A stretch of 64,000 nucleotides of DNA from Azonexus sp. (GTDB lineage: Bacteria; Pseudomonadota; Gammaproteobacteria; Burkholderiales; Rhodocyclaceae). The notes under the pieces are model-generated. The model had not been told where the DNA came from. It saw only the letters and a list, made by a program, of their open reading frames with translations, and did no database searches. Below, piece after piece: positions 2,256 to 57,146 of this stretch (within the stretch, counting starts at the first letter, position 1; each line of letters begins with the position of its first letter). The stretch covers positions 1 to 64,000 of the forward strand of contig JAGOBB010000004.1 in the NCBI GenBank assembly GCA_017983615.1. The letters run 5' to 3'. The position numbers and the translations under genes are program-made.

Positions 2256-2299
2256 CCAATTTTGAATTTGGCCGTTTTTTGGGGCCGACCGTAGCATTT
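2256..2299 (-). repeat. dispersed bipartite repeat, copy 1
   Basis: On the minus strand the core AAATGCTACGGTCGGCC (2299 to 2283) is followed by nine A/T-rich bases, GGCC and AAATTCAAAA. It lies between two convergent genes (cupin on plus, esterase on minus). One of 13 copies in the window; see findings. Confidence 0.85.
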
Positions 2300-2347
2300 G
2301 GTTGCCGATGCCGCATGAGCGGCCCCTGGACACGTCCCTCGAAACCG

Positions 2348-3376
2348 CTAGCGCAAACGACGCTCGACCGCCGGGTCCAGGCCGGCCATGAAGGCCTCGA
2401 CCCGCCGGGTGTAGTCGGTGGCCAGCCCCAGTTCCTTGTTCAGCGCGCCGTGACTCATCGCTTGTTCCTCAACGCCGGCCTTTACGCCCAGGCTGTTGCT
2501 CTTCTCGGCGTAGGCGCGCGCCTGAGCGCAGGGGTCGTCCTTGCGGGTGGTCGAGCAGACGCCCAGCCAGGGGCCGGCGCTGCGGTCGATCTGATGGTAC
2601 GGCGAGGCGGCGATCCAACCCGCCTCGTCATCGCCGAAGGCTTCACGGTAGCGCGCCTTGAGGAAGGGGTAGATGTTGGGCATCTGGCGCACGACATCGA
2701 TGGCCCCGGCATCCAGCGACACGGTGCCGAGCAGCGGCGCCACGCCGTTGGCCTGGCGGATGCGGCGGTCGGCATTGACCAGCGACACGAGATGCGCGCC
2801 GGCCGAGTGCCCCATCAGGATCACCTTTGTCGGGTCACCGTGCCAGTCCCGGGCGTGTGCCTGCACGTAGGCGATGGCCCGGGCGACATGGTTGGCCTGG
2901 GCCAGCGCATTGCTGCCGTCGTTGACCATCGGGCAATTGACGGAAACAAAGACGAAGCCGCTGTCCGCCCAACGCGCCACCTTGTTCTCGGTCACGCCGG
3001 CAACCGCCTTGTCGCCCACGCACCAGCCGCCGCCGTGGACCATGACGATGACCGGCGCCAGGCCATCGCCGCCCTTCGCCGGCAGATACACATCCAGCTT
3101 TTCGCGCTGGCCACTGCCGTAGCCAACGTCCTTCAGATCGGGTTGTGGACCGGGTTTGGCGGCTGACGTCCGGGCCTGCAGACGGTCCACCCGCCGCGAC
3201 CAGTCAGCGCAGGAGAGCGCGTTGCCGCCCTGGCTCTCCGGGTCCGCGCTTTCCACAGCGCGCTCCTGCAGGCGTTCGCGGAGTCGGTCGCGCAAGGGGC
3301 CGGCCTGCAGATCGGTGACGATACCGGCCGCGATGGCGGCCAGCACAACGGCGCGGATGGGGAAAGATTTCGTCAT
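2348..3376 (-). CDS. exported alpha/beta hydrolase (HSL-type esterase)
   Basis: A 342-residue hydrolase of the hormone-sensitive-lipase type. Seen: signal peptide in the first 26 residues (IRAVVLAAIAAGIVTDLQAG), the oxyanion motif VHGGGWCVG and the nucleophile elbow MGHSAGAH, then a late Asp and a His (MSHGALNKE) able to complete the triad. The family hydrolyses short esters or peptides; substrate unknown. I start at 3376 because this places the signal peptide at the N-terminus; the frame is open 14 codons further. It stands alone on the minus strand between two repeats of structure, a dispersed repeat after it and a strong hairpin before it. Confidence 0.85.
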   Translation of the reverse strand: MTKSFPIRAVVLAAIAAGIVTDLQAGPLRDRLRERLQERAVESADPESQGGNALSCADWSRRVDRLQARTSAAKPGPQPDLKDVGYGSGQREKLDVYLPAKGGDGLAPVIVMVHGGGWCVGDKAVAGVTENKVARWADSGFVFVSVNCPMVNDGSNALAQANHVARAIAYVQAHARDWHGDPTKVILMGHSAGAHLVSLVNADRRIRQANGVAPLLGTVSLDAGAIDVVRQMPNIYPFLKARYREAFGDDEAGWIAASPYHQIDRSAGPWLGVCSTTRKDDPCAQARAYAEKSNSLGVKAGVEEQAMSHGALNKELGLATDYTRRVEAFMAGLDPAVERRLR

Positions 3377-3488
3377 GGCAGGCACTCCGTAAGACGGTGA
3401 CCGCCGGGCGGCGGCCAACCGATGGATTGGCCAGATTGTCGCCGCTTAATCCCGCAAATATCGCAACGGCATGGTAAGGAATTGTTGC

Positions 3489-3523
3489 AAATCGTTGCCG
3501 GGCGCCTGGCCCGGCAACGATTT
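3489..3523 (-). terminator. hairpin terminator after the penicillin-binding protein gene
   Basis: A perfect 15-base inverted repeat (AAATCGTTGCCGGGC and its complement) with a 5-base loop, 13 bases past the stop codon at 3536 on the minus strand. It ends in ATTT rather than a long T run, so termination strength is uncertain. Confidence 0.65.
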
Positions 3524-3535
3524 ACGCCTGCCCGG

Positions 3536-6568: not shown

Positions 6569-6727
6569 GAGTCGGGGGCAAAAATTGTGTCGAAGCACCA
6601 AGTGCTTCATTTTTATATTGGAAACGCTGCAAACGGCGGCCGCTATCGTATTTGCATGACACGGCGGTCGCCGTCATTCTACCCGCTCCCGGAACGGTTC
6701 AGGGATTGCCGCAGCGGCAAAAGCCAG

Positions 6728-6765
6728 AATGCTACGGTCGGCCGTTTTTTTGGGCCATTTTCAGG
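6728..6765 (+). repeat. dispersed bipartite repeat, copy 2
   Basis: Core AATGCTACGGTCGGCC at 6728-6743, a T-rich stretch, then GGGCCATTTTCAG. The distal half contains the stop codon (TCA on the plus strand, 6761-6763) of the desaturase gene on the minus strand. Confidence 0.85.
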
Positions 6766-7681
6766 AAGCGCCGCGTGGCAGGCGTTGCGCCGCAATCGGC
6801 CCGCGGAGCTGGCGGAAGACGGTGGCGAACCAGCCGCCTTGGTAGCCATTCCCGCTCTGCCGGTGCCATTCCGGCAACTGCTGCCAGGGCACCCGCGAGC
6901 GCAGGTGGTGGGCACCATGAAGGTTGAAGTGCAGGATCAGCCGGGAGAGCGCCGCCGGCAGTTCGAGATTGCGGGCGTAGCGGATATCGTCGAGCGGCGT
7001 CGCATAATGAAAGGCATTGTCGACGAGGCTGATCAGCAGGCCACGCCCGGCCACGGCCAGGACCAGCATCCAGGCGTGCTCGCCGTAGAGAGCGAAGGCG
7101 GCGGCATGGACGAGGATGATGGCCAGTGCTTCGAGGCGCGCATCGCGCAGGGTTTCGGCACTCAGCAAACGCTCGGCAAGTTCGCCGACAACATTGCACG
7201 GGCTGGCGATACGGTCGACCACGCGGCACGCCATTTTGCGCGGCAGCAGCACCAGCAGGCCGCCGAGCAGTTCGACCAGGTAAAGCCCGCCGAGCAGCCG
7301 GAAATAGTAGCCGAGCGTCGCGATCAGCCGATTGTCGCGGCCGGCGACATAGACCTCAGAGCGTTCCCGCTCGGTCCGGCTGTGCGCGTGGTGGAGCAGA
7401 TGGCCCCAGCGCAGCAGGTCGAACGGCGCGCCATAGAGCACCGCGTTGACGCGGCCGGCCAGCCGGTTCGTCCGGCGGTCCTCGAACATGACACCGTGGA
7501 TAGCCTCGTGGATGAAGGCCCACCAGGCATTGGTCAGCAGCACCCCGGGCAGCAGCAGCCAGCCCCAGCGTGGATCAAATGGCAACAGGAAGAGCGGCAG
7601 CAGGAAGAGCTGGTTGGCCTGAAGCGCCAGATGAAAGCCAGCCAACCGGGTGTTGCTGCGATACAGCGTGGATGTGGGCAT
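6761..7681 (-). CDS. membrane fatty acid desaturase
   Basis: A 306-residue integral membrane protein with the three histidine boxes of di-iron fatty acid desaturases: HEAIHG, HLLHHAH and HGAHH. Hydrophobic segments surround the boxes. It would insert a double bond in an acyl chain, in lipid or acyl-CoA form. It is the last gene of a minus-strand run behind btaA, btaB and a HAD phosphatase, with a 7-base gap, so it may act on acyl chains of the betaine lipid; that link is inference. An alternative start at 7705 would overlap the upstream gene by 17 bases. Confidence 0.85.
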   Translation of the reverse strand: MPTSTLYRSNTRLAGFHLALQANQLFLLPLFLLPFDPRWGWLLLPGVLLTNAWWAFIHEAIHGVMFEDRRTNRLAGRVNAVLYGAPFDLLRWGHLLHHAHSRTERERSEVYVAGRDNRLIATLGYYFRLLGGLYLVELLGGLLVLLPRKMACRVVDRIASPCNVVGELAERLLSAETLRDARLEALAIILVHAAAFALYGEHAWMLVLAVAGRGLLISLVDNAFHYATPLDDIRYARNLELPAALSRLILHFNLHGAHHLRSRVPWQQLPEWHRQSGNGYQGGWFATVFRQLRGPIAAQRLPRGAS

Positions 7682-10333: not shown

Positions 10334-10451
10334 GGTGGCGCGGTTCGAGTCGGAATCCCGCGAAAGTAAGCGTCCGGTGTTACGAACCCATGACAAACGC
10401 CCAATGATCGGACCGATTCCCGGTTTTTTCGGCCCCGGCTCGATGGAAAAA

Positions 10452-10491
10452 TCCTGATTTTTGCCCTTTTTTCCGGCCGACCGTAGCATTT
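10452..10491 (-). repeat. dispersed bipartite repeat, copy 3
   Basis: Minus-strand core AAATGCTACGGTCGGCC (10491 to 10475), then GGAAAAAAG, GGCA and an A-rich tail. It sits upstream of btaA in the intergenic region shared with the small gene at 10595. Confidence 0.85.
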
Positions 10492-12615: not shown

Positions 12616-13596
12616 ATGGGAAAGCCGCGCGAACAGGCCGTAGCAAGGTGCGCGAATGAAGGCGAGTCGATCACCATTTCAGCTCGGGATGGATACTCCC
12701 TCCATGCTTCAGTTTGGGCCTTCGACGCCCAGCCTCGGTACTCACCTCGACCAGTTGTAATAATCAATCCGGCCACATCGGTTCATAGCCGCTACTACGC
12801 GCGTTTTGCTGCCTTTCTGCACGCCAACGGGTTTGATGTGGTCACCTACGACTATCGCGGCATCGGCGGCTCCCGCCCCAAAACACTACGAGGCTTTGAT
12901 GCCGGCTGGATTGAATGGGGCACGCTGGACTTCGAAGGCGTCTTGAGATTTGTCGCCCAGCGTTTTCCCGGCCAGCCCGTACAGGTCGTGGCACATAGCG
13001 TGGGCGGGTTTCTGGTCGGTCTCGCGGAGTCGAACCATCTGGTCAGCCGCGTCTTCACCATGGGCGCGCAGTTCGCCTACTGGAAGGACTACGCACGCCA
13101 TCAGCGCTTGTCCATGCTTTGGCGTTGGCATGTGGTCATGCCTGCCCTGGCGCATGTCTTCGGGTATTTCCCGGGAAAGCGTCTAGGCTGGCTCGAAGAT
13201 ACGCCACGCGGGGTTGTGCACGACTGGACGGCGCGCCATCCGCGCTTTGAGGATGCCTATCGCAAAGGACGCCGCGCCATGACAGCCGAGCAAAGACTGC
13301 AACTTGTCGAACGCTTCTGCCAGGTCAAAGGCGAGACGCTCGCGCTGTCGATGACTGACGATGCATTCGGCACCATCCCTGCGATCCATCGACTGCTTGG
13401 CTATTTCCAGAATAGCCCGGCCCGCCATCTGCGGATTGCCCCAGGCGCACTCGGGTTAAGCGAAATAGGACATTTCGCCTTCTTTCAATCCCGCTTCGAG
13501 GACTCGCTCTGGCCGATCCCTTTGTCGTGGTTGCGCGATGCCCGGGTGCCCGACAATGCGCCCGGAGAAATGATCAGCCCAAGGCTGAAACGGTAA
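12616..13596 (+). CDS. alpha/beta hydrolase
   Basis: A 326-residue hydrolase with the elbow VVAHSVGGFL (Ser about residue 137), YDYRGIGGSR early in the fold and a late GHFAFFQ that may give the catalytic His. It resembles the large cytoplasmic hydrolases annotated as serine aminopeptidase S33-like; the substrate is unknown. The ATG at 12616 has GAAGGGAAG upstream. It stands downstream of a perfect palindrome and converges on the LysR gene, overlapping its 3' end by 23 bases. From here to 22 kb the GC content falls compared with the genes before. Confidence 0.8.
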   Translation: MGKPREQAVARCANEGESITISARDGYSLHASVWAFDAQPRYSPRPVVIINPATSVHSRYYARFAAFLHANGFDVVTYDYRGIGGSRPKTLRGFDAGWIEWGTLDFEGVLRFVAQRFPGQPVQVVAHSVGGFLVGLAESNHLVSRVFTMGAQFAYWKDYARHQRLSMLWRWHVVMPALAHVFGYFPGKRLGWLEDTPRGVVHDWTARHPRFEDAYRKGRRAMTAEQRLQLVERFCQVKGETLALSMTDDAFGTIPAIHRLLGYFQNSPARHLRIAPGALGLSEIGHFAFFQSRFEDSLWPIPLSWLRDARVPDNAPGEMISPRLKR

Positions 13597-14494
13597 GCCT
13601 TGCTTCGTCGAAAATCCAGTCGATCACGGCCTGAATCTCTTTGCGCGGCGAAGGATCGGCCTGCACCAGGCAGTAAATCTGGCTTGACCTTGGCCCCGCT
13701 TGCTGCGTATCCAGGGCAATGAGGCGCCCATCGTCCAGCATGTCGGCAATCAACTCTCGCCGCCCGAGAGCGATGCCCTGCCCGGCAAGTGCAGCGTGAA
13801 TCATTTGATCGTACTGATTGAAACGCAAGATTCCTTTCGGCTTGACGCCTGACCAGCCCAGCATTTCCAGCCACGTTTGCCATGACCACCATGGACGAAG
13901 ATCACCATCGAATTCGAGCAACACGGAATCGGCAATAGCCTCCGGATTGTCGAGTCGCTTGATACCCAAGGCGGGATGAGCGACCGGTGAAATAGTTTCG
14001 CCAAACAGGCGCCGTGCGCCTTCGGGAGCAGCCGATTCTGCACAATACCGGATCGCGATATCCCCCCCTTCCTTGCGCAGGTCGACAATCTGATTATTTG
14101 CCGACAGGCGGATTTCGATTTCCGGATTTTTCTGTTGAAACCGCCCCAAACGCGGCAGCAGCCACAGGCCGACGAAACCAACACTGGCGGTAACCGTCAC
14201 CGGTCGCTGCCGCAAGTTGTCCTGCATGGCACCGACGACATCCTGCAGTTGCTGCATCGAGTTATCAGCCACCCGAAAAAGGCGCTCGCCTTCCGCTGTG
14301 AAAGCGATGGCTCGATGGCTGCGCACAAAGAGCTTCACCCCCAGGCTCTCTTCCAGCCCGTGAATCTGCCGGCTCACCGCAGATTGCGTCAGGAACAGGT
14401 CCTGTGCGGCCAGCGTAATGCTCATACGCCGACCGACCGCGACAAACCCGCGGATCAGATCAAGGGATGGGATTTTGGCGAGTGGGATAGACAT
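13574..14494 (-). CDS. LysR-family transcriptional regulator (GcvA-like)
   Basis: A 306-residue regulator with an N-terminal winged helix (LAAQDLFLTQSAVSRQIHGL, recognition helix at about 28-48) and a LysR substrate-binding domain from about residue 95. The helix and the phrase VKLFVRSHRAIAFTAEGERL are typical of the GcvA-like branch. It is transcribed divergently from the MFS gene at 14617 with 122 bases between them, the usual arrangement for a LysR protein that controls its neighbour. It is therefore the likely regulator of the catabolic-looking cluster to the right; the inducer is unknown. Confidence 0.9.
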   Translation of the reverse strand: MSIPLAKIPSLDLIRGFVAVGRRMSITLAAQDLFLTQSAVSRQIHGLEESLGVKLFVRSHRAIAFTAEGERLFRVADNSMQQLQDVVGAMQDNLRQRPVTVTASVGFVGLWLLPRLGRFQQKNPEIEIRLSANNQIVDLRKEGGDIAIRYCAESAAPEGARRLFGETISPVAHPALGIKRLDNPEAIADSVLLEFDGDLRPWWSWQTWLEMLGWSGVKPKGILRFNQYDQMIHAALAGQGIALGRRELIADMLDDGRLIALDTQQAGPRSSQIYCLVQADPSPRKEIQAVIDWIFDEARLTVSALG

Positions 14495-14616
14495 TCTATT
14501 GGCTCATGTGAAACAGCGAAAAACTCGGTTGAGTATGACCTGAAACGGCATTCTAATGAGGATATGCAGGGATCGGCCAAAACAAAATAATTGCCCAGAG
14601 AGAATGTGATACTGAG

Positions 14617-15849
14617 ATGGAAAGATCAAATGACGCAGCTTGCTGGTGGCACCAAGCTTGGGTGTATGTCGTGGCAGGCGGCCTGATCATGGGGCTGGCG
14701 CTGGGGATTCGGCACGCGACAGGAATATTTCAGGTGCCGATTACGATGAGTAACGGCTGGACGCGCGAGGCCTTCGGATTCTCCATTGCCATGCAGAACT
14801 TGATCTGGGGTTTGGCCCAACCGTTTACCGGCATGCTGGCCGACCGGTTTGGGTCGCTGCGCGTCATTGTTGCCGGACTGATTTTCTATGCCATCGGTCT
14901 CGCCTGGATGAGCGTGGCCGCGACGCCATTGACGTTCACGTTGTCGGCGGGATTGTGCATAGGCGTCGCCCTCTCCGGTACTTCTTTCGGGGTGATTTAT
15001 GGCGCGCTTAGCCGAATGGTGCCGCCGGATCGGCGTAGCTGGGCGCTCGGCCTGGCAGGCGCAGTTGGTGGCTTTGGCCAGTTTGCCATGGTGCCGCTGA
15101 CTCAGGGATTGATCAATTTGCTGACCTGGTCGGGCGCACTGGTCGCCTTGGCGGTCACCTGCGCCGCTTTTTTGCCTCTGGCCTTGCCCATGCGTGAAAG
15201 CGCATCGACAACAGCTGTCCATGGCCCAGAACAGACGATGCGCGAAGCGCTGGCGGAGGCATTCCGGCATCGGGGCTTCTGGTTGCTGAACCTAGGCTTT
15301 CTGGCCTGCGGCTTCCAGTTGGCCTTCATCGCATCACACTTGCCTGCCTACCTGCTGGACAAGGGAATGTCGGGCAACGTGGCGGTCGCCGGACTGGCCA
15401 TCATTGCGTTGAGCAACGTGGCAGGTACCTATTGCTGCGGACTGCTGGGCGGCATGTACCGACGCAAGTACCTGCTCTCGGGCATCTATCTGGTGCGCTC
15501 CCTGGTCATGGCGCTCTTCGTCCTCTTGCCGTTGACCACCTGGAGCCTCTATCTCTTTTGTGCCGCCATGGGCTTCATCTGGCTGGGCACCGTGCCGCTG
15601 ACCAATGGCCTGGTCTCGCAGGTTTTTGGCGTGAAATACATCACCACGCTATTCGGTTTTGTCTTTTTTGGCCACCAACTGGGTTCATTTTTCGGTGTCT
15701 GGCTGGGTGGCTACATGTTCGACGTGACGAAGTCGTACGACCTGATCTGGTTCATCGGCATCGCCCTCGGGGTAATTGCCGCGCTCCTGCATTTTCCGAT
15801 CAATGACCAGGAAGTGCAACGACTCAGACTGGGCTATGGTGCGTCATAA
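14617..15849 (+). CDS. MFS transporter (oxalate/formate or monocarboxylate type)
   Basis: A 410-residue transporter with twelve predicted membrane segments and the MFS signature between segments 2 and 3 (GMLADRFGSLRV). The overall pattern resembles the monocarboxylate/OFA branch, so the substrate is probably an organic acid, which agrees with the enzymes encoded downstream. It opens a run of plus-strand genes; its TAA is immediately followed by the ATG of the EthD gene. Probably controlled by the divergent LysR protein. Confidence 0.88.
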   Translation: MERSNDAACWWHQAWVYVVAGGLIMGLALGIRHATGIFQVPITMSNGWTREAFGFSIAMQNLIWGLAQPFTGMLADRFGSLRVIVAGLIFYAIGLAWMSVAATPLTFTLSAGLCIGVALSGTSFGVIYGALSRMVPPDRRSWALGLAGAVGGFGQFAMVPLTQGLINLLTWSGALVALAVTCAAFLPLALPMRESASTTAVHGPEQTMREALAEAFRHRGFWLLNLGFLACGFQLAFIASHLPAYLLDKGMSGNVAVAGLAIIALSNVAGTYCCGLLGGMYRRKYLLSGIYLVRSLVMALFVLLPLTTWSLYLFCAAMGFIWLGTVPLTNGLVSQVFGVKYITTLFGFVFFGHQLGSFFGVWLGGYMFDVTKSYDLIWFIGIALGVIAALLHFPINDQEVQRLRLGYGAS

Positions 15850-16239
15850 ATGATCAAAATATCGTTCTGCCTTCGACGCCGGGCCGGGCTTTCCCACGCG
15901 GAATTCCTGGCGTACTGGAAAAACGAGCACAGTGCGCTCGTCCGGCAATACCGGAGCGTGCTGCGCATTGCGCAATACCACCAGTTTCATGTCGATTTTG
16001 GTCCCCTGACGTCGAAGCTGATGGCCTTCCGCGACTCGCCTGAACCCTACGATGGCATCGCGGAGATCTGGTACGAAAGCCGTAGCGCTCTTGAAACGCT
16101 CGGGCAAGATCCGGCAGCCAGGGCCGCCAGTCGACTTCTTCGGGAGGACGAAGAACGCTTCGTCGACCTGCAGAACTCCCCGATTTTTGCCGGGGAAGAG
16201 ATACCGCTGCTCGGCAGCAACCCAGGACCGCTTTTATGA
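15850..16239 (+). CDS. EthD-domain protein
   Basis: A 129-residue ferredoxin-like alpha-beta barrel protein. The N-terminal phrase RRAGLSHAEFLAYWKNEH is the EthD signature, and the later FVDLQNSP fits the family's C-terminal part. EthD proteins occur next to degradation enzymes; some are lactone or polyketide-like isomerases, others have no known reaction. It starts directly after the MFS stop codon, so coupled translation is likely. Confidence 0.8.
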   Translation: MIKISFCLRRRAGLSHAEFLAYWKNEHSALVRQYRSVLRIAQYHQFHVDFGPLTSKLMAFRDSPEPYDGIAEIWYESRSALETLGQDPAARAASRLLREDEERFVDLQNSPIFAGEEIPLLGSNPGPLL

Positions 16240-16250
16240 GAAGGAGCACC

Positions 16251-16532
16251 ATGCACTATGTATTGATCACCCATGAAGTCGAGTCATATCCAGCATGGAA
16301 GATCGTTTTTGACCGTGCCGCCGGCATTCGCAAGGACGCCGGAGAAATAAAGTATCAACTTCTGCATGTGGACAACAACACAAACGTCATTGTCCATTTC
16401 TCGCAGTGGTCCTCCCTGAGCAATGCGAGAGGCTTCTTTGAGTCCCCCGAACTGGAAAAAATCAGGCAAGAAGCAGGCGTGAAGGCCCCTTCGTTTATTT
16501 ATCTCAACGAAATTGAGCAAGCGGTCCTATAG
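16251..16532 (+). CDS. small ABM/Dabb-like ferredoxin-fold protein
   Basis: A 93-residue protein (MHYVLITHEVESYPAWKIVF) with the size and pattern of the dimeric alpha-beta barrel superfamily, comparable to antibiotic biosynthesis monooxygenase-like proteins. I choose the ATG at 16251 because AAGGAG lies 6 bases before it; an ATG at 16236 overlaps the EthD stop codon and would add five residues. Function unknown; its position between EthD and cupin genes suggests a part in the same pathway. Confidence 0.65.
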   Translation: MHYVLITHEVESYPAWKIVFDRAAGIRKDAGEIKYQLLHVDNNTNVIVHFSQWSSLSNARGFFESPELEKIRQEAGVKAPSFIYLNEIEQAVL

Positions 16533-16609
16533 CGCCAAGGGCAAGTTGCAGCCCACTCGGAAGCATTCAATCGACCTTCAAGCTGCCAAGCCATCCTAAT
16601 GGAGAAGTC

Positions 16610-17068: not shown

Positions 17069-17135
17069 TCAAGTGATTTGCGGGCTGCTGCGCAGCAAAT
17101 GACATGAAAGTTGAATCAAACTGCAGAAAGGCACC

Positions 17136-17966: not shown

Positions 17967-17976
17967 GAGCAGCGTC

Positions 17977-18441: not shown

Positions 18442-18487
18442 AACCCCATACGTGTCGCCAGTCCCTTGCCAAAAAACACCCAAAAAA

Positions 18488-19051: not shown

Positions 19052-19091
19052 ATTGGCCAATCCCGATTCATGCATTTCAGGCGCTGTTTAC

Positions 19092-19616: not shown

Positions 19617-19619
19617 GGC

Positions 19620-20174: not shown

Positions 20175-20263
20175 GTAGCAGCTCCGCTGGTTGGTTACGT
20201 GAATTGTCCCCAACCACCTGCCAGATCAGTAGCCCATGAAAGCCAATTCCTGCGCCAGGACGC

Positions 20264-23477: not shown

Positions 23478-24481
23478 TCGACCCGACAGGCGTAGGGATC
23501 GGCGAATGCTACGGTCGCCCTCAAATTTAGGCCATTTTTGACAGCGGTCATCTCGGCCAGGATGGCGACGGCGATTTCCGGCGGCGTCCGGCTGCCGATG
23601 GGCAGGCCGACCGGGCCGTGCAGGCGGTCCACTTCAGCCTGCGAGAGGTCGAAATACTGCAGCAGCCGTTCACGGCGTTTGCCGTTATTGGCCTTCGAAC
23701 CCAGCGCACCGACGTAGAAGGCCGGCGACTTCAGCGCCTCGAGCAGCGCCAGGTCGTCGAGTTTGGGGTCATGTGTCAACGCGACGACTGCGCTGCGCGG
23801 GTCGAGATTCAGCGCGCTGACGGCGTCGTCGGGCATCTCGGCGACGCGCTCGGTGCCCGGCACGTCCCAGCCGTCGGCGTACTCACTGCGCGGGTCGCAA
23901 ATGTAGACGTGATAGCCCAACGCCTGCGCCATCGTCGCCAGGTAGTGCGAAATCTGCCCGGCGCCAATGATCAGCAACCGCCAGGCCGGGCCGTGCAGGG
24001 TGACCAGCGTCTCGCCGTCCCACTGCTGGCTGTCGCCGGCAGCGCCCCCCTCCAGACTGACCTCGCCCGTCGCCAGCGCCACCCGCCGATGCACCAGCTG
24101 GCCGGTGGCAATGCGCTGGGCGAGATGGTCGAGCAGGCCGGTATCCGGCGCCGGCTCGAGCACCAGTTCCAGCGTGCCGCCACAGGGCAGCCCGAAGCGA
24201 TGCGCCTCGTCGGCCGTCACGCCGTAGCGCAGCAGGCGCGGCGCGGTGTTGCCAACTTCGCCGGAAAACTCGCCGGCAACCGCCCGGCGGATCAGGTCGT
24301 CCTCGATGCAGCCGCCGGAGACCGAACCCTGCACCTGGCCGTCGTCGCGCAGGATCATCCAGGCACCCGGCGGCCGCGGGGCGGAACCCCAGGTCCGGGC
24401 GACGGTGACCAGCGCGAAGCGATGCCCGGCCGCGGCCCAGCGACGGGCGGCGGCAAGGACTTGCGTATCCAGACTGTCCAT
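23474..24481 (-). CDS. xdhC: XdhC/CoxF-family molybdenum cofactor insertion protein
   Basis: A 335-residue XdhC protein, which carries and protects molybdenum cofactor and delivers it to xanthine-dehydrogenase-type enzymes. Seen: SVSGGCIEDDL (XdhC/CoxI domain) near residue 50 and a Rossmann domain LLIIGAGQISHYLA from about 185, with HDPKLDDLALLEALKSPAFYVGALGSK typical of the C-terminal half. It starts one base after the IorB-like gene. The last 20 codons contain a dispersed repeat copy, which reads as LRATVAFADPY in this frame, so the repeat has become part of the protein. Confidence 0.9.
   Translation of the reverse strand: MDSLDTQVLAAARRWAAAGHRFALVTVARTWGSAPRPPGAWMILRDDGQVQGSVSGGCIEDDLIRRAVAGEFSGEVGNTAPRLLRYGVTADEAHRFGLPCGGTLELVLEPAPDTGLLDHLAQRIATGQLVHRRVALATGEVSLEGGAAGDSQQWDGETLVTLHGPAWRLLIIGAGQISHYLATMAQALGYHVYICDPRSEYADGWDVPGTERVAEMPDDAVSALNLDPRSAVVALTHDPKLDDLALLEALKSPAFYVGALGSKANNGKRRERLLQYFDLSQAEVDRLHGPVGLPIGSRTPPEIAVAILAEMTAVKNGLNLRATVAFADPYACRVE
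23505..23542 (+). repeat. dispersed bipartite repeat, copy 4 (inside xdhC)
   Basis: Core AATGCTACGGTCGCCC at 23505-23520, A/T-rich spacer, then TAGGCCATTTTTGAC. The gene reads the opposite strand, where the core encodes ATVAF. Confidence 0.8.
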
Positions 24482-27340: not shown

Positions 27341-28333
27341 ATGGATATAGCCGCTCAGACCACCGCGCCCGCGATTGATTCCGCCGCACTGGAAACCGAC
27401 CTGCTGGCCAGCCAGCGCGAGGAACTCGCCGACATCATCCGCCGCCATTGCCTCAGCGACGGCGCGCAGCCGACTCCCATCCCCGGCCTGACGCTGTTCC
27501 GTGGCTCGGCCTGCAACGCGCCGAGCTGTGCCGTCATGGCCTCGATCTTCGCGATGATGGCCCAGGGCGCCAAGCGCATCCTGGTCGGCGACGACGCCTA
27601 CGACTACGACGCCCGGCACTACCTGATCACCTCGGTCGACCTGCCGATGTTCTCGCGCATTACCCACGCCTGCGCTACCCAGCCCTACCTCGGCCTGGCG
27701 CTGAACATCGACCCGCTGAAAATCAGCGAACTGGCCGCCGCGATACCGCGCAACCGGGCCCCGGAAGCCGTCGACCGCGGCATTGCCGTCGGCCTGCTGA
27801 GCGCCGAGATACAGAACGCCGCGCTGCGCCTCGCCCGCCTGCTCGACACACCGACCGACATCCCGGTGCTCGCCCCGATCATCGAACGCGAACTGCTCTA
27901 CCGCCTGCTCACCGGCGCCCTCGGCGGGCGCCTGCGCCAGGCCGTGGTCAGCGGCAGCCACAGCCACCAGATCGTTCGCACGATCGACTGGCTCAAAGCC
28001 AACCTCGACCAGCCGGTCAGCATCGACCAGCTGGCCAGCCTCGCCACCATGAGCAAGTCATCGCTGCACCACCATTTCAAGGCGCTGACCACGATGACGC
28101 CGCTGCAATACCAGAAGCAATTGCGCCTGCACGAGGCGCGCCGGCTGATGCTGCTCGCCGACCACGACGCCGCCTCGGCTGCCCACCGGGTCGGCTACGA
28201 AAGCCCCTCGCAATTCAGCCGCGAGTACCGCCGCATGTTCGGCACCCCGCCGGCCCGCGACGTCGCGCAGTTGCGTGTGATTGACAGCCTTCCGGCAGAA
28301 GCGCCGGAATTCCCGGCAAATGCTACGGTCTGA
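27341..28333 (+). CDS. AraC-family transcriptional regulator (DUF/AraC_N type)
   Basis: A 330-residue regulator with an AraC_N sensing domain ([16 protein letters not shown]) in the first half and two C-terminal HTH motifs ([20 protein letters not shown] and [22 protein letters not shown]). It is divergent from the iorA operon with 178 bases between and is the natural candidate to regulate it. The start at 27341 is chosen since the upstream 23 codons lack conserved character. The last codons, NATV and the TGA, are formed by a dispersed repeat copy. Confidence 0.88.
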
Positions 28334-28355
28334 CCCAAAAAACAGGTAAAAACAA
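28318..28355 (+). repeat. dispersed bipartite repeat, copy 5 (covers a stop codon)
   Basis: Core AAATGCTACGGTCTGACC, A-rich spacer, then AGGTAAAAACAAAATGG. The TGA stop codon of the AraC gene (28331-28333) is inside the core's GGTCTGACC, and the tail runs into the start of msrB. Confidence 0.8.
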
Positions 28356-28356
28356 A

Positions 28357-28755
28357 ATGGCAAAAATCGAGAAAACCGACGCCGAATGGCGCGCCCAACT
28401 GGACGACGAGCAATACCGCGTCACCCGCCGAAAAGGCACCGAACAAGCCTTCACCGGCCAATACTGGGATTGCCACGAGGACGGCACCTACCGCTGCATC
28501 TGCTGCGGCGCCCCGCTCTTCCGATCCGAGACCAAGTTCGACTCCGGCTGCGGCTGGCCCAGCTTCCATACCCCGAACGACGAAAAGCTGGTCGATGAGC
28601 ACGTCGACCGCAGCTTCGGCATGGTCCGCACCGAAGTCACCTGCCACGACTGCGGCGCCCACCTCGGCCACGTCTTCGACGATGGCCCGGCCCCGACCGG
28701 GCTGCGCTACTGCATCAATTCGGCTTCACTGAAGCTGGAGAAGGACGACTCGTAA
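28357..28755 (+). CDS. msrB: peptide methionine (R)-S-oxide reductase
   Basis: A 132-residue MsrB, which repairs methionine-R-sulfoxide in proteins with thioredoxin as reductant. Zinc Cys pairs (CICC and CHDC) and the catalytic phrase RYCINSASL near the C-terminus are present, with the substrate-binding CGWPSFHTP in between. Length is standard and there is no signal peptide, so it is cytoplasmic. The gene starts 23 bases after the AraC stop codon, just beyond the dispersed repeat. Confidence 0.95.
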
Positions 28756-37375: not shown

Positions 37376-37415
37376 AAATGCTACGGTCGGCCCTAAAAAA
37401 CGGCCAAAATCAAAA
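37376..37415 (+). repeat. dispersed bipartite repeat, copy 6
   Basis: Core AAATGCTACGGTCGGCC, spacer CTAAAAAAC, then GGCCAAAATCAAAAT. Lies between the convergent MFS and radical SAM genes. One of the most complete copies. Confidence 0.9.
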
Positions 37416-37423
37416 TCCGCCCG

Positions 37424-39185: not shown

Positions 39186-39599
39186 ATGGCCGAGCAGCAT
39201 CGCGTCGCTATCAATACCCAAGGCCGCGGTTCGCTCGAGATAACCGGCGAAATCGCCGCCATCGTGCGGAATGCTACGGTCGATGCCGGAATTGCCCATA
39301 TTTTCGTGCGCCACACCAGTTGCGGGCTGGCCATCACCGAGAACGCCGACGCCAGCGTCCGCCGCGATCTCGAAACCCTGATGCAGCGCTGGGCGCCGGA
39401 CGGCGACCCGGCCTACCGCCACGACCTCGAAGGCGACGACGACATGGCCGCCCACGCCCGCTCGCTGCTCACCGGTGTGTCGCTGAGCGTGCCTTTTGCC
39501 GACGGCCGCTTGCTGCTCGGCACTTGGCAGGGCATCTACCTGTTCGAGCACCGGGCGCAGGGGCATAGGCGGGAGTTGATCGTCACCCTGACCGGCTAG
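39186..39599 (+). CDS. yjbQ: YjbQ/UPF0047 family protein
   Basis: A 137-residue protein with the family phrase HIFVRHTSCGLAITENAD and the C-terminal LGTWQGIYLFEHRA. E. coli YjbQ has weak thiamine-phosphate-synthase-like activity; the true role is open. Codons 28-34 (RNATVDA) are written by a dispersed repeat, just upstream of the conserved HTSCG motif. Start at 39186; the longer frame overlaps yajD. Confidence 0.93.
   Translation: MAEQHRVAINTQGRGSLEITGEIAAIVRNATVDAGIAHIFVRHTSCGLAITENADASVRRDLETLMQRWAPDGDPAYRHDLEGDDDMAAHARSLLTGVSLSVPFADGRLLLGTWQGIYLFEHRAQGHRRELIVTLTG
39270..39306 (+). repeat. dispersed bipartite repeat, copy 7 (inside yjbQ)
   Basis: Core AATGCTACGGTCG at 39270-39282 with ATGCC after it, a short spacer, then GCCCATATTTTC. 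The core reads NATV in the yjbQ frame. The distal half is degenerate but keeps position and A/T-rich character. Confidence 0.7.
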
Positions 39600-42189: not shown

Positions 42190-42229
42190 AAATGCTACGG
42201 TCGGCCGGAAAAAAGGGCCAAAATCAAAA
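42190..42229 (+). repeat. dispersed bipartite repeat, copy 8
   Basis: Core AAATGCTACGGTCGGCC at 42190-42206, spacer GGAAAAAAG, then GGCCAAAATCAAAAC. Lies in the gap between the TPR-methyltransferase stop and the DUF808 start, both on the minus strand. Confidence 0.9.
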
Positions 42230-42240
42230 CCGGCCCAGGG

Positions 42241-44487: not shown

Positions 44488-44528
44488 CAATTGCTACGGT
44501 CGCCTCCCTTTTTGGCCCTATTTTCAGA
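44488..44528 (+). repeat. dispersed bipartite repeat, copy 9
   Basis: Core AATTGCTACGGTCGCC (one change, T for A, in the first half), T-rich spacer, then GGCCCTATTTTCAG. It ends 6 bases before the parE start codon. Confidence 0.8.
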
Positions 44529-44533
44529 AGCGC

Positions 44534-47438: not shown

Positions 47439-49349
47439 ATGCCCGACGCTTCCCCCCGCATCCTCTCCGTCATCCCGCCGATGACGCAGCTCAACACGCC
47501 CTACCCGGCGACCGCCTACCTGACCGGTTTCCTGCGCTCGCGCGGCTTTCACGCCGAGCAGACCGACCTGGCCCTGGCTTTGGTTCTGGAACTGCTGTCC
47601 ACGGCCGGCCTGCCCAAGCTCAAGACGGCAGCCGAGGCCATTCCGCCAAAGAAGCGTTCGAACACGCTGAAGACCTTCCTCAACCAGTACGACCGCTACC
47701 TGGCCAGCATCGTCCCTGCCATCGCGCTGCTCCAGGGTCGCGACGGGTCGATTGCCCACCGCATCTGCAGCCGCGCCTTCCTGCCCGAGGGGCCGCGCTT
47801 CGCGTCGCTCGACAACTACATCGACGAAGACGGTGGCGATCCGCTGGCCTGGGCGTTCGGCTCATTGGGCGTGCAGGACAAGGCGCGCCACCTGGCCACC
47901 CTTTACCTGGACGACCTGGCCGACGTGATCCGCGAGGCCGTCGACACCCGTTTCGAGTTCGTCCGTTACGCCGAATCGCTGGCCCAGAGCCAGGCCAGCT
48001 TCAATCCGCTGGCCACCGCGCTGGCCGCGCCGCCAACGCTGATCGACACCACTTTGCAATTTTTGGCCAAAAAAGCCATCGACCGTAGCATTCCGGACAT
48101 CGTGCTGATTTCCGTGCCCTTCCCCGGCTCGGTCTATGCTGCTTTCCGGATCGCCCAGACGATCAAGGCCGCGAACCCGAAAGTCGTCACCGTACTCGGC
48201 GGCGGCTACGTCAATACCGAGTTGCGCGAACTCGCCGAGCCGCGCGTCTTCGACTACTTCGACTACGTCACGCTCGATGACGGCGAGAAGCCGCTGCTCG
48301 CGCTGTTCGAACACATTGCCGGCCAACGGCCAAGGCTCAACCTCCTCCGCACCTTCACCCGGGTCGACGGGCAGGTCCGTTACTTCAACAGCAGCGAGCC
48401 CGACATCCCTTTCGAGGAGGTTGGTACGCCGACCTGGGACGGCCTGCCGCTCGACCGCTACCTGTCACTGCTCGACATGCTCAATCCCATGCACCGGCTG
48501 TGGTCCGATGGGCACTGGAACAAGCTGACCGTCGCCCACGGCTGCTACTGGAAGAAATGCAGCTTCTGCGACGTCAGCCTCGACTACATCGGCCGCTACG
48601 ACGCGGCCAGCGCCAGCACGACGGTCGACCGCATCGAGCGCATCGTCGCCGAGACCGGCCACAGCGGCTTTCATTTCGTCGACGAAGCCGCCCCGCCCAA
48701 GGCCCTGCGCGCCCTGGCCGAGGAGTTGCAGCGGCGCAACCGGGCCATTTCCTGGTGGGGCAACATCCGCTTCGAAAAATCCTTTACGCCGGAACTTTGC
48801 CTGCAACTCGCCGACAGCGGCTGCATCGCCGTCTCCGGCGGCCTGGAAGTTGCCTCCGACCGGCTGCTCGATTTGATGAAGAAAGGCGTCTCGGTCGACC
48901 AGGTCGCCCGCGTCACGCGCGCCTTCACGGACGCCGGCATCCTGGTCCACGCCTACCTGATGTACGGCTTCCCGACGCAGACGGTGCAGGACACGGTCGA
49001 TGCGCTGGAATACGTCCGCCAGCTATTCGCCGAAGGCTGCATCCAGTCCGGCTACTTCCATCGCTTCTCGTGCACCGTCCATTCGCCGGTCGGGCAGAAT
49101 CCGGCCGAGTACGGCATCAAGCTGCAGCCCTTGCCGCCCGGCAAATTCGCCAGGAACGACGTGCATTTCATCGACCCCACCGGCGTCGACCACGACCGAC
49201 TCGGCAAGGCGCTGAACAAGGCGCTCTATAACTACATGCACGGCATCGGGCTGGACGAGGACGTCCGTGCCTGGTTCGACGACCGCGTACCGAAGCCGCG
49301 CGTCGGCCGCCACTTCATCGCCAAGGCGCTCGGCGCCCGATACGACTGA
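47439..49349 (+). CDS. radical SAM protein with cobalamin-binding-like N-terminal domain
   Basis: A 636-residue radical SAM enzyme. Residues 1-300 form a Rossmann-like region (VIPPMTQLNTPYPATAYLTG, DIVLISVPFPGSVYAAFRIA, VVTVLGGGYVNTELRELAEP) of the B12-binding type, though the DxHxxG loop is not evident. The barrel follows with CYWKKCSFCDVSLDY (CxxxCxxC, about 368-375) and HFVDEAAPPKALRAL. Such proteins act on methylation or anaerobic biosynthesis; the substrate is unknown. One base separates it from the next gene. Codons 211-218 (KKAIDRSI) contain a dispersed repeat copy. Confidence 0.85.
   Translation: MPDASPRILSVIPPMTQLNTPYPATAYLTGFLRSRGFHAEQTDLALALVLELLSTAGLPKLKTAAEAIPPKKRSNTLKTFLNQYDRYLASIVPAIALLQGRDGSIAHRICSRAFLPEGPRFASLDNYIDEDGGDPLAWAFGSLGVQDKARHLATLYLDDLADVIREAVDTRFEFVRYAESLAQSQASFNPLATALAAPPTLIDTTLQFLAKKAIDRSIPDIVLISVPFPGSVYAAFRIAQTIKAANPKVVTVLGGGYVNTELRELAEPRVFDYFDYVTLDDGEKPLLALFEHIAGQRPRLNLLRTFTRVDGQVRYFNSSEPDIPFEEVGTPTWDGLPLDRYLSLLDMLNPMHRLWSDGHWNKLTVAHGCYWKKCSFCDVSLDYIGRYDAASASTTVDRIERIVAETGHSGFHFVDEAAPPKALRALAEELQRRNRAISWWGNIRFEKSFTPELCLQLADSGCIAVSGGLEVASDRLLDLMKKGVSVDQVARVTRAFTDAGILVHAYLMYGFPTQTVQDTVDALEYVRQLFAEGCIQSGYFHRFSCTVHSPVGQNPAEYGIKLQPLPPGKFARNDVHFIDPTGVDHDRLGKALNKALYNYMHGIGLDEDVRAWFDDRVPKPRVGRHFIAKALGARYD
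48056..48093 (-). repeat. dispersed bipartite repeat, copy 10 (inside the radical SAM gene)
   Basis: Minus-strand core AATGCTACGGTCGATGGC, six Ts, then GGCCAAAAATTGC. Read on the plus strand it encodes AKKAIDRSIPD. Confidence 0.8.
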
Positions 49350-50330: not shown

Positions 50331-50370
50331 AAATGCTACGGTCGGCCATAAAATTTGGCCAAAAACAAAA
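50331..50370 (+). repeat. dispersed bipartite repeat, copy 11
   Basis: Core AAATGCTACGGTCGGCC at 50331-50347, spacer ATAAAATTT, then GGCCAAAAACAAAAA. Its distal A-rich end is also the T run of the terminator for the minus-strand lipoprotein gene. Confidence 0.9.
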
Positions 50371-50389
50371 AGGGCGCCAGCGGCGCCCT
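50361..50389 (-). terminator. rho-independent terminator after the CsgG-like gene
   Basis: AGGGCGCC and GGCGCCCT form a stem with a 3-base loop; on the minus strand it is followed by TTTTTGTTTTT. It starts 21 bases after the stop codon at 50410. Confidence 0.85.
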
Positions 50390-54489: not shown

Positions 54490-54720
54490 GGCGCTCCGAT
54501 ATCGCTTATGACGAATGGACTATATCGAAATATATACCCCACAAACCAATAAATCAATAAATTCATCGAAATTAACAACATGCATTCACACATCCATTCC
54601 AATTGACCAGTCAACATGAACGTAAGGCATCCACAGAAGCTCCGAAGCCTTGCCTTCCCATGGTGATAGGTGCCCGACTTCAGGTACCATCCGCGGGGCT
54701 TGCCGACAAGACGACTCACC

Positions 54721-57099
54721 ATGACCGACCAATTGAAACTATTCGACCCCGATGCACCGCAAGCGCCCGCCGAGCCGGCGCAACACCATGCAACGCCGGC
54801 TTCACCGATTGAAGATCCCATTTCAGATTCGGCCGGCGTGCCCCCCATCCCCCCCGCCGCCAGCGGACCGGCCGACGACATCCCGCCGCCCGCCGAATAT
54901 GCCGCCCGCCGCTATCTCGAATACGCAATGAGCGTCGTCACCGGCCGCGCCCTCCCCTCGGCCGCCGACGGTCAGAAGCCGGTACAACGCCGCATCCTCT
55001 ACGCCATGCACCGGATGGGCCTGTATAAGAGCCCGCGCCACGTCAAATCGGCACGCGTCGTCGGCGACGTGATCGGTAAGTATCACCCGCACGGCGACTC
55101 CTCGGTCTATGACGCGATGGTCCGCATGGCCCAGGACTGGAGCCTGCGTTACCCGATCGTCGACGGTCAGGGCAATTTCGGCTCGCGCGACGGCGACAAC
55201 GCCGCCGCCATGCGCTACACCGAAGCACGTCTGACGCCGATCGCCGAACTGCTGCTCGCGGAAATCGACGAAGGCACCGTCGACTGGAAACCCAACTACG
55301 ACGGCGCCAACGACGAACCGGCGCTGTTGCCGGCTCGCCTGCCGTTTTGCCTGCTCAACGGTGCTTCCGGCATCGCCGTCGGCATGGCCACCGAAATTCC
55401 GGCCCACAACCTGCGCGAAGTGGCCAATGCTACGGTCGCCCTGATAAAAGACCCTAATTTCAGCGAAGACGATGTGCTGGCGATGATTCCCGGCCCCGAC
55501 TACCCGGGCGGCGCGCAGATCATTTCGTCACCCGAGGAAATCGCCGCCACCTACCGCACGGGGCGCGGCAGCCTGCGCGTCCGCGCCAAATGGAAAATCG
55601 AGAATCTGGCCCGCGGCCAGTGGAAGCTGGTCATCACCGAACTGCCGCCGGGCGTCTCGACGGCCACCGTAATGTCGGAAATCGAAGCCTGCTCCAACCC
55701 GGTGGCCAAGGAAAAGGCCGGCAAGAAAGTGTTTACGCCAGAGCAGCTGAACCTGAAAGCGGCCTTCCTGTCGGCCATTTCGGAATCCGGCGTGCGCGAC
55801 GAATCTGGCAAGGAACACGCCATCCGCCTGGTCATCGAGCCGGCCAGCTCGCGTCAGGGGCAGGACGACCTGATCCGCCTGCTGCTCGCCCACACCAGCC
55901 TGGAAACCAACGCCTCTATCAACCTGACCGTCCTCGGCGTCACCGGCACGCCGCGCCAGGCCTCGCTCTATTCGATCATCGCCGAGTGGTGTCGCTTCCG
56001 GCTGGCCACCGTCGAACGACGCACGCGCCACCGCCTGACCGCCGCCGAAAAGCGCATTCACATCCTCGAAGGCCGGCAGGCGATCCTGCTCGACATCGAC
56101 AAGGTGATCAAGGTCATCCGCGAATCGGACGACCCTAAAGCCGACCTGATCGCCCATTTCAAGCTCTCCGAGATCCAGGCCGAAGACATTCTCGAAATCC
56201 GCCTGCGCCAGCTGGCTCGACTGGAAGGCATCAAGATCGGTGAAGAACTGGCCAGACTGCGCGAAGAAGCCGCCGGCCTGAACAAGCTGCTCGATTCCGA
56301 AGAAGCGCTGCGCGCCTGCGTCGCCGCCGAAATCGAAGCCGACGCGAAGAAATACGGCGACGATCGCCGGACCTTCATCGAAACCGCCGAAAAGGTCACA
56401 ATGTCGGACGCCAAAACCGTCTCCATTGTCGACGAGCCGACCACGCTGATCGTCTCAAAGCATGGCTGGCTTCGTTCGCGCACCGGCCACAACATCGACC
56501 CGACGCAACTGACCTTCCGTTCCGGCGACAGCCTGCTCGCCTGCCTGCCCTGCCGCACCGTCGACCACCTGATCCTGCTCGACACCGGGGGCCGCGCCTA
56601 TTCCATCGCTGCATCCGACATTCCTGGCGGCAAAGGCGACGGGATCCCGGCCACCTCGCTGGCCGATTTCCAGGATGGCGGCAAACCCTGCCTGGCTCTG
56701 GCGGTTTCCAGCGAAAAACTCTATCTGGTCGCCGCCGACGGCGGCTACGGCTTCCGCTGCCAGGGCAGCGACTTTCTGTCCCGCGGCAAGGCTGGCAAGG
56801 CCTTCCTGACCCTCGGCGACAACGAAGCCCCGGCCGTCTTCATGCCCTCCCCGGCGACCGGCGAAATCGCCTGCGTGACCCGCGATGGCCGCGCCCTGGT
56901 CTTCAACGTCGAAGAAATCCGCCTGCTCGCCAAGGGCCGCGGTCTCAAGCTGATCGACGCCGACCCTGGCAAAACCGCGCTGGAAGACATCGTGCCGGTC
57001 GTCGACGGCATCGCCGGCAAATTGAAGGGCGAGCGCCTCGAAATCTGCCGCGGTAGCCGCGGCGGCAAAGGCAAGCCGATCAAGGCGCCCCGCAAGTAG
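54721..57099 (+). CDS. parC: DNA topoisomerase IV subunit A
   Basis: A 792-residue breakage-reunion subunit of topoisomerase IV. The QRDR region is [18 protein letters not shown] to [19 protein letters not shown]; the catalytic Tyr is in [12 protein letters not shown] (about residue 168). The C-terminal half carries the beta-pinwheel repeats (for example [20 protein letters not shown] region), shorter than in GyrA and without the GyrA box. The first 60 residues are a Pro/Ala-rich extension. The dispersed repeat at 55426 encodes [11 protein letters not shown] within the DNA-gate region. Starts at 54721; the longer frame lacks support. Confidence 0.95.
55426..55465 (+). repeat. dispersed bipartite repeat, copy 12 (inside parC)
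   Basis: Core AATGCTACGGTCGCCC at 55426-55441, spacer TGATAAAAG, then ACCCTAATTTCAGCG. Both halves are kept although they lie in a conserved reading frame, where the core reads NATVAL. Confidence 0.8.
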
Positions 57100-57107
57100 T
57101 TGCAGCC

Positions 57108-57146
57108 AAATGCTACGGTCAATGCCAAAAACAGGGCAAAATGCCC
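57108..57146 (+). repeat. dispersed bipartite repeat, copy 13
   Basis: Core AAATGCTACGGTCAATGCC, short A-rich spacer, then AGGGCAAAATGCCCC. It begins 9 bases after the parC stop codon. The end also contains GGGCAAAATGCCC, a small hairpin. Confidence 0.78.

What the first reader, a model, noticed from the sequence alone, without database searches (positions are those of the whole stretch)
2256..57146. A 13-copy bipartite dispersed repeat with the architecture of a DNA uptake sequence
The core AATGCTACGGTCGGCC (in the form AAATGCTACGGTC) occurs at 2283, 6728, 10475, 23505, 28318, 37376, 39270, 42190, 44489, 48081, 50331, 55426 and 57108, ten on plus and three on minus. A random 11-mer would be expected about 0.03 times in this window. 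After the core comes an A/T-rich segment of 6-10 bases, then GGCC (or a near form), then a second A/T-rich segment, at the same distance from the core within one or two bases. A fixed-length core plus two phased A/T-rich segments is the layout of the Haemophilus uptake signal, but the core differs from AAGTGCGGT and from the Neisseria ATGCCGTCTGAA. This would be an undescribed uptake-type or chromosome-organising signal in Rhodocyclales.
Basis: partly seen in the sequence, partly recalled or inferred. Interest (0 to 1): 0.92.

Follow-up and report, generated by a model that had tools for sequence, protein, structure and literature searches.

The report
Uptake-signal-like DNA motif in Azonexus
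A genus of water and soil bacteria marks its own chromosomes with hundreds of copies of a short DNA signal, differing from species to species, that looks like the "take up my own kind's DNA" tag known from the Haemophilus and Neisseria families.

Summary
The repeat is real. The window has 12 exact ATGCTACGGTC and one single-mismatch copy; the 2.92 Mb assembly has 468 (234 per strand), reversed control 0. Each copy is a ~41-bp motif: a sharp core, then A/T tracts about one and two helical turns downstream, with background flanks. It is not a mobile copy. Relatives in the genus (Azonexus/Dechloromonas, inferred; Rhodocyclales) carry dialects around CGGTC: 43 of 76 genomes by my threshold. In 285 genomes of 67 other genera CGGTCRACC never exceeds 326 copies (607-1215 in 9 of 12 genus members sampled), though some exceed their own control. 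The far A/T tract recurs in all ten dialect genomes checked; the near one is weak in several. One homologous site carries different species' dialects. Copies favour intergenic and convergent gaps, are over-evenly spaced, and are depleted from two insertions in comEC. Best reading: a third lineage of DNA uptake signal, like the Pasteurellaceae USS in layout and sharing CGGT. Not shown: uptake, receptor. Against: motif presence does not track comEC integrity, and two fragmented motif-bearing genomes lack the pilin hits. An isolate (Azonexus sp. R2A61, 1,054 GCGGTCRACC) makes it testable.

The parts
2259..2299 (-). motif copy, core 2287-2297, convergent intergenic gap
   Evidence: exact core
6727..6767 (+). 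motif copy, core 6729-6739, intergenic
   Evidence: exact core
10451..10491 (-). motif copy, core 10479-10489, near the start of a DUF3419 gene as called
   Evidence: exact core
23504..23544 (+). motif copy, core 23506-23516, coding, antisense to its gene
   Evidence: exact core
28318..28358 (+). motif copy, core 28320-28330, last codons of an AraC-type regulator gene
   Evidence: exact core
37376..37416 (+). motif copy, core 37378-37388, convergent intergenic gap after an MFS gene
   Evidence: exact core
39269..39309 (+). motif copy, core 39271-39281, inside a UPF0047 gene
   Evidence: exact core
42190..42230 (+). motif copy, core 42192-42202, intergenic; this block alone aligns to many places in G245 and G263
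   Evidence: exact core
44489..44529 (+). motif copy with one core mismatch (A to T at the first core base), upstream of a GyrB/ParE-family gene
48053..48093 (-). motif copy, core 48081-48091, inside a B12/radical-SAM gene; the homologous site carries other species' dialects
   Evidence: exact core
50331..50371 (+). motif copy, core 50333-50343, intergenic; the aligned block of G245 begins at a motif copy in the same place
   Evidence: exact core
55425..55465 (+). motif copy, core 55427-55437, coding
   Evidence: exact core
57108..57148 (+). motif copy, core 57110-57120, intergenic
   Evidence: exact core

Best explanation
The repeat is a DNA uptake signal of a naturally transformable bacterium of the Azonexus/Dechloromonas group, working like the Haemophilus USS. 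A surface DNA receptor, most likely a minor type IV pilin, would contact the core (dialect arm + CGGTC + RRC) and read the A/T tracts one and two turns downstream as a rigid or bendable segment. Pilus retraction would pull the bound DNA to the outer-membrane pore, then ComEA and ComEC would bring in a strand for RecA-dependent recombination. Because tagged fragments are taken up preferentially, recombination keeps correcting core mutations and spreads the tag through the genome, and each species drifts to its own dialect. Shown: the motif, its genome-wide excess, its geometry, dialects at a homologous site, distribution, and presence of competence genes. Inferred: receptor binding, biased uptake, and drive.
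For: 468 exact 11-mers, 234 per strand, control 0. 90 exact cores against 13 one-mismatch cores in 484 kb (7.3 expected by chance; 9 of the 13 have the A/T tracts), the 'unusually strong consensus' described for USS and DUS (PMC1626085 passages). Selecting only on the distal part A5-6.GGCCAAAA gives 17 distinct places, 16 with the exact core at the expected distance (30 of 32 overlapping matches, control position 0). Aligned on the core alone, the A/T peak at about +23..+26 from the C of CGGTC recurs in ten dialect genomes and the one at about +11..+16 is strong in four and weaker in the rest. 43 of 90 sites intergenic against 8.6% non-coding DNA (p 2e-22), 17 in convergent gaps against 1.0 expected. 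Spacing too even: 2 of 68 gaps under 1 kb against 13 expected, 0 of 2000 simulations as low. Dialects: 43 of 76 genus genomes have GCTACGGTC, ACGGTCRACC or GCGGTCRACC at >=100 copies and >=2x reversed control (tallied in 60); 39 reach four-fold (recounted by hand). The coding site at 48081 reads as other dialects in other species; three species have no motif there over the same aligned length. Around two comEC insertions 2 of 29 motif cores lie in 77 of 190 kb of island, p 6e-5. ComEC match in 75/76 (68 over cut-off), ComEA over cut-off in 67/76, GspH/FimT in 69/76, all found in G000. Two consensus patterns: 0 matches in viral contigs.
Against: No uptake experiment in this genus came up in my searches. 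Motif presence does not track comEC integrity: motif+ 35 intact/7 broken, motif- 21 intact/7 broken, Fisher p 0.54, six genomes left out as unclear. Motif-negative genomes as a rule also have ComEC, ComEA and minor pilins. Two motif-bearing genomes, G263 (the G000 dialect; 470 contigs) and G257 (870 contigs), have no PF16732 and no PF12019 match, and G263 no ComEA match either. ComEC and ComEA models also ring in 12 and 9 of 14 control genomes, so their presence is weak evidence. No receptor identified: the ComP_DUS hits are PilE-like pilins of two classes that do not follow the dialects; G000's solved-structure matches are ordinary pilins. Density in G000 (one exact core per ~6 kb) is below the ~1/kb of Haemophilus and Neisseria. 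The islands are also poorer in G+C than their flanks, which lowers the expected count somewhat. Gene calls come from my own simple caller. G000 is an 86%-complete assembly whose consensus could hide variants.
Confidence: 0.8

Rival explanations
1. A chromosome-organising or nucleoid-protein binding site (segregation, anchoring, replication polarity) scattered over the genome.
For: Over-even spacing, an intergenic bias and phased A-tracts would suit an architectural protein. Lack of a link to comEC integrity fits this as well as it fits uptake.
Against: No strand polarity: 234/234 genome-wide, and 9/6 and 43/32 forward/reverse in stretches of opposite GC skew. Half the copies lie inside genes. 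Dialects diverging between congeners and few one-mismatch copies are unlike regulatory or architectural sites. Depletion in mobile islands is neutral between the two.
Confidence: 0.1
2. A transcription terminator or RNA-level element at gene ends.
For: 17 of 43 intergenic sites lie in convergent gaps. In R2A61 and G147 part of the copies are long palindromes (arm >=8 in 16% of 19 and 19% of 37), some followed by A/T runs.
Against: In G000 the core is not palindromic, there are no inverted pairs within 60 bp, and 47 of 90 copies are coding, in both orientations. Both orientations occur in convergent gaps (10 and 7). At gathering thresholds Rfam has no match in the window beyond two tRNAs. Terminator use would be a secondary co-option, as reported for USS/DUS (PMC1852404 passages).
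Confidence: 0.04
3. A copy-and-paste element (REP/MITE-like).
For: Very sharp consensus and hundreds of copies.
Against: Flanks at background right outside about -3..+38, best flank identity 0.52. At site 48081, species without the motif align over the same length (one coding site, where insertions would be disfavoured anyway). Half the copies are inside genes. Two consensus patterns have no match in viral contigs.
Confidence: 0.02
4. A former uptake signal: the genus inherited tagged genomes, but many present species no longer use it.
For: 33 of 76 genomes lack the three tested patterns; comEC is broken in 7 of 42 classified motif-bearing genomes.
Against: In G000 exact cores outnumber tract-bearing one-mismatch cores about ten to one (90 against 9), which suggests recent maintenance. 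Different species keep sharp, different dialects.
Confidence: 0.04

Closest known systems
Uptake signal sequence (USS) of Pasteurellaceae (Hin AAGTGCGGT, Apl ACAAGCGGT)
   Same: Core of 9-11 bp followed on the 3' side by two A/T-rich segments about a helical turn apart; hundreds of copies on both strands; far more perfect than one-mismatch copies; dialects. The inner core GCGGT overlaps CGGTC here, and many species of this genus have GCGGTC (PMC1626085 and PMC12616744 passages).
   Different: Betaproteobacterial order Rhodocyclales, not Pasteurellaceae. Distinct arms and an added RRC(C) after CGGTC. From the published numbering the A/T tracts lie about 6 bp further from the core, with 11 rather than 12 bp between them (my inference). 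Some dialects are palindromic. Uptake not tested.
DNA uptake sequence (DUS) of Neisseriaceae (eight dialects)
   Same: Genome-wide tag with several species dialects around an invariant core in a betaproteobacterial family (PMC3630211 passages).
   Different: Unrelated core (CTG); no flanking motifs in DUS (PMC1626085 passage). The ComP_DUS Pfam hits here are PilE-like and do not identify a ComP orthologue.
REP/BIME palindromic repeats (definition recalled)
   Same: Short, many copies, often intergenic.
   Different: No copied flanks, half coding, dialect change in place at one site.

Membership tests
DNA uptake signal (USS/DUS kind) | Short core at genome-wide excess, no strand bias | tested here: met
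   468 copies, 234/234, reversed control 0
DNA uptake signal (USS/DUS kind) | Perfect copies far outnumber one-mismatch copies | tested here: met
   90 against 13 (7.3 expected by chance) in 484 kb
DNA uptake signal (USS/DUS kind) | Related species carry dialects around a shared inner core | tested here: met
DNA uptake signal (USS/DUS kind) | Arises by substitution, not insertion | tested here: inconclusive
   one coding site only: three species without the motif align over the same 51 nt; flanks at background argue the same way
DNA uptake signal (USS/DUS kind) | Host has the transformation machinery | tested here: met
   G000 has ComEC, ComEA, GspH/FimT and PilE-like hits; genus-wide 75/76 ComEC (68 over cut-off), 67/76 ComEA over cut-off. 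Presence does not separate motif+ from motif- genomes, and G263 lacks three of the four hits
DNA uptake signal (USS/DUS kind) | DNA bearing it is taken up preferentially | not testable with these tools
   needs an uptake competition experiment
Pasteurellaceae USS | Inner core GCGGT | tested here: not met
   G000 has ACGGTC; GCGGTC occurs in other species of the genus, e.g. 1054 GCGGTCRACC in G246. The part shared across dialects is CGGTC
Pasteurellaceae USS | Two A/T segments 3' of the core at fixed helical spacing | tested here: met
   met in G000 and strongly in G210, G243, G244; in the other six genomes the far segment is clear and the near one weaker; phase to the core differs from Pasteurellaceae
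Pasteurellaceae USS | Occurs in Pasteurellaceae | tested here: not met
   named relatives include Azonexus/Dechloromonas records, Rhodocyclales
Neisseriaceae DUS | Core CTG within a 10-12-mer | tested here: not met
   core is CGGTC-based
Neisseriaceae DUS | ComP receptor | tested here: inconclusive
   PF16732 over cut-off in 70/76 and in 0 of 14 control genomes, but the 20 hits I extracted are PilE-like pilins of two classes

The most novel reading that the evidence does not exclude
Uptake specificity in this genus and in Pasteurellaceae is one ancient system: a homologous minor pilin (FimT/ComN type) reads CGGT plus two helically phased A/T tracts across beta- and gammaproteobacteria, and the arms have diversified into dialects that act as present-day transformation barriers between sister species.
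Probability: 0.15. Interest if true: 0.93.

Novelty: new variant of a known kind. Interest (0 to 1): 0.84.

Why it matters
[quoted passage not shown] A third, environmental lineage with about 40 tagged genomes and at least six dialects in one genus would make open questions testable: how uptake specificity evolves, whether dialects isolate species, and which pilin reads the tag. It also offers a cultured isolate in which to test them and predicts how to transform it.

Tried and rejected
Receptor search: PF16732 (ComP_DUS) and PF12019 (GspH/FimT) across the genus, extraction of 20 PilE-like and 12 FimT pilins and one solved-structure search gave ordinary minor pilins in two arrangements that do not follow the dialects; no receptor is claimed.

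Motif against competence: comEC integrity did not separate motif+ from motif- genomes, so I do not use it as support. The 'broken' list (14 genomes) was made by hand; six genomes were left out.

Limits of the outside control: at least 16 of the 285 other-genus genomes reach 100 copies of CGGTCRACC and twice their reversed control (e.g. 230 against 72 in G103, 103 against 26 in G055), so on that 9-mer the two-fold rule does not separate genera; the separation is in absolute number (at most 326 against 607-1215) and density (by my reading at most about 70 per Mb against 183 or more). Low-level signals outside the genus are not excluded. De novo k-mer search in ten genomes of other genera (2 x 20 kb each) found no CGGTC-type signal; at least two had unrelated repeats. 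Different uptake tags in other genera cannot be excluded.

Small samples: six genus genomes (G112, G203, G218, G250, G232, G199; 40-98 kb each) gave no motif de novo. G203's top 8-mer was CGGTCAGC (22 against 6.4 expected), but it has no phased A/T tracts. G232 nevertheless counts as motif+ genome-wide (517 GCGGTCRACC against 73), so small samples can miss a dialect.

Rejected readings: replichore-polar signal (no strand/skew link), Rfam RNA, phage-borne repeat.
Full report
OBSERVATION. The window holds 12 exact ATGCTACGGTC and one single-mismatch copy, ten on + and three on -. In the whole assembly (G000, 2.92 Mb, 34 contigs, 86% complete) the 11-mer occurs 468 times, 234 per strand, and the reversed pattern never; the 13-mer AAATGCTACGGTC occurs 232 times against 0. 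The listed places lie on many contigs, so it is a property of the genome and not of this window.

ANATOMY. From 86 exact sites in 464 kb the consensus is (c)AAATGCTACGGTC GGCCcc AAAAAA n GGCC AAAATc.AAA, about 41 bp; columns beyond about -3 and +38 are at background. No pair of 90 copies shares a flank (best 60-nt identity 0.52, mean 0.27). The two A/T tracts start 11 bp apart, about one helical turn. Selecting on the tail alone (A5-6.GGCCAAAA) gives 17 distinct places, 16 of them with the exact core at the expected distance (one search had counted overlapping matches, 30 of 32, and a control position gave 0). One-mismatch cores number 13 with 7.3 expected by chance, against 90 exact; 9 of the 13 have the A/T tracts and so are probably true variants.

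DISTRIBUTION. With a simple gene caller of my own, 43 of 90 sites in 484 kb are intergenic while 8.6% of bases are non-coding, and 17 lie in convergent gaps where about 1 is expected. The 47 coding copies lie in both orientations (25 same strand, 22 opposite) with a preferred frame: 19 of 25 same-strand copies fall in one frame, mostly read as N-A-T-V. Spacing is more even than random placement (CV 0.64 against 0.87; 2 of 68 gaps under 1 kb against 13). Orientation does not follow GC skew. In the window the longest gap (10.5 to 23.5 kb) covers a block of accessory genes.

DIALECTS. Named relatives place the genus in Azonexus/Dechloromonas, order Rhodocyclales; this is inference, the genome itself is unnamed. 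G000's own 11-mer is at background (0-5 copies) in the other 198 family genomes sampled. But GCTACGGTC, ACGGTCRACC and GCGGTCRACC are strongly enriched in other species of the genus: by the threshold of at least 100 copies and at least twice the reversed control in at least one pattern, 43 of 76 genomes carry it and 33 do not; 39 of the 43 reach four-fold (recounted by hand from the same calls). Dialects read from sequence include ATGCTACGGTCGGCC (G000; G245 and G263 share its blocks), TGCTACGGTCAACCGG (G244, G215), TTCCACGGTCAACCGG (G210; G244 and G210 both hold a mixture of these two arms), TTTTCACGGTCGACCGTG (G147), CTGCGGTCAACC (G266) and CTGCGGTCGACCGCAG (G246). CGGTCRACC stays at or below 326 copies in 285 genomes of 67 other genera, against 607-1215 in 9 of the 12 genus members in that sample; at least 16 of the 285 nevertheless exceed their own reversed control two-fold, so a weak signal elsewhere is not excluded. 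G246 and the genome of the isolate Azonexus sp. R2A61 give identical counts (549/505, control 76/68), so I take them as the same genome; it has 1,054 GCGGTCRACC and, in 60 kb, 40 GCGGTCGAC.

SHARED GEOMETRY. Aligned on CGGTC, ten dialect genomes selected only by the core show an A/T peak at about +23..+26, with a G/C dip before it. The nearer peak at about +11..+16 is strong in G000, G210, G243 and G244 and weaker in the other six. Six of the ten samples are small (5 to 13 sites). The distances do not change while the arms do, which argues for one recognising protein family.

HOMOLOGOUS SITES. At 48081, inside a B12/radical-SAM gene, the homologous position reads TTGCTACGGTCAACCGGAATTTTGGCC in G244/OSL_B.mb.10 (same sequence there), TTCGCACGGTCAACCGG in CTSoil_121, TCTCGCGGTCGACCGC in R2A61, TTTTCACGGTCGACCGTC in a D. 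aromatica MAG, TATTGCGGTCGACCGT in Azonexus GS18, and no motif in three others, all over the same aligned length; G245/AG28 aligned only in part there. This is a single coding site. A second conserved site with variable arms is visible in the minor-pilin neighbourhood of six genomes. The site at 50333 is matched in G245: the aligned block (84.7% over 268 nt) begins at a motif copy.

MACHINERY. ComEC is found in 75 of 76 genomes (68 over cut-off; 12 of 14 control genomes also match), ComEA over cut-off in 67 (9 of 14 controls match), GspH/FimT pilins in 69 (4 of 14 controls), and the ComP_DUS Pfam family in 70 with 0 of 14 controls; G000 has all four, its FimT cut by a contig end. Two motif-bearing, fragmented genomes do not fit: G263 and G257 have neither pilin hit, and G263 no ComEA hit. 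The ComP_DUS hits I extracted are PilE-like minor pilins of two classes, not demonstrated receptors. comEC integrity is unrelated to motif presence (35/7 against 21/7 intact/broken, p 0.54, 70 genomes classed by hand, 6 left out). This is a result against a simple story, although recent loss would not erase a tag.

FOREIGN DNA. Around two large insertions in comEC (G243 and G230), 2 of 29 motif cores (ACGGTCRAC) lie in 77 kb of island and 27 in 113 kb of flank (p 6e-5); the islands are 4-9 points lower in G+C. No contig of the viral collection matches either of two consensus patterns.

COMPARISON. Passages of PMC1626085 describe for Pasteurellaceae a core, two A/T segments 3' of it about a helical turn apart, many more perfect than mismatched copies, and origin by mutation; the first three are met here and the last is supported by one site. 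Passages of PMC7811141 say that GCGG is crucial for uptake in H. influenzae and that A/T-tract shape affects it. The core overlaps in CGGT, the phase of the tracts to the core differs by about 6 bp (my inference), and the host is a betaproteobacterium. PMC12616744 (passages) states that only Neisseriaceae and Pasteurellaceae are known to discriminate in this way. Searches for uptake-sequence terms with Rhodocyclales, Rhodocyclaceae, Dechloromonas and Azonexus, for uptake sequences in general, and for the 11-mer itself showed no report of this motif (listings, of which one search showed 40 of 281; no preprints and few subscription journals are held). Passages of the D. aromatica RCB genome paper (PMC2907700) call it likely transformationally competent on the strength of tra genes and mention no uptake motif.

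VERDICT. A third lineage of uptake-signal-type sequence with species dialects is the best reading (0.8, unchanged after checking). Biased uptake and the receptor remain to be shown by experiment.

Noticed in passing
G243:C1:2720419-2763735 (L247-L249); also comEC in G230, G199, G250, G207, G241, G268: comEC is interrupted in several genus genomes, in these seven with pieces 23-64 kb apart; over all the broken cases breaks recur near profile positions 147, 161-166 and 590. In G243 the inserted DNA carries a rve/Mu-type transposase, TniB and TniQ genes and a C5 DNA methylase: a Tn7/Tn5053-like element (label recalled) sitting in a competence gene.
   Followed up: partly
window 12616-22059: Block of accessory genes (LysR, MFS, cupin, PEP mutase, GNAT, DLH) with weak coding scores in my caller and no motif; probably acquired DNA.
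   Followed up: partly
G182 stretches L064-L065; G057 stretches L070-L071: Other genera show unrelated repeated k-mers: TGTGGGAGGGGTCTTCTG-like in G182 and ATAAGTAGTGTCA in G057.
   Followed up: no
G147 and G246 motif copies: In some species the core GGTCGACC is palindromic and a minority of copies extend to long perfect inverted repeats, some followed by A/T runs, suggesting double use as terminators.
   Followed up: partly
G000:C23:9-703 (L090): Minor pilin pair (GspH/FimT and PilE-like) at a contig end; in other genomes the same families sit either side by side or several kb apart.
   Followed up: partly
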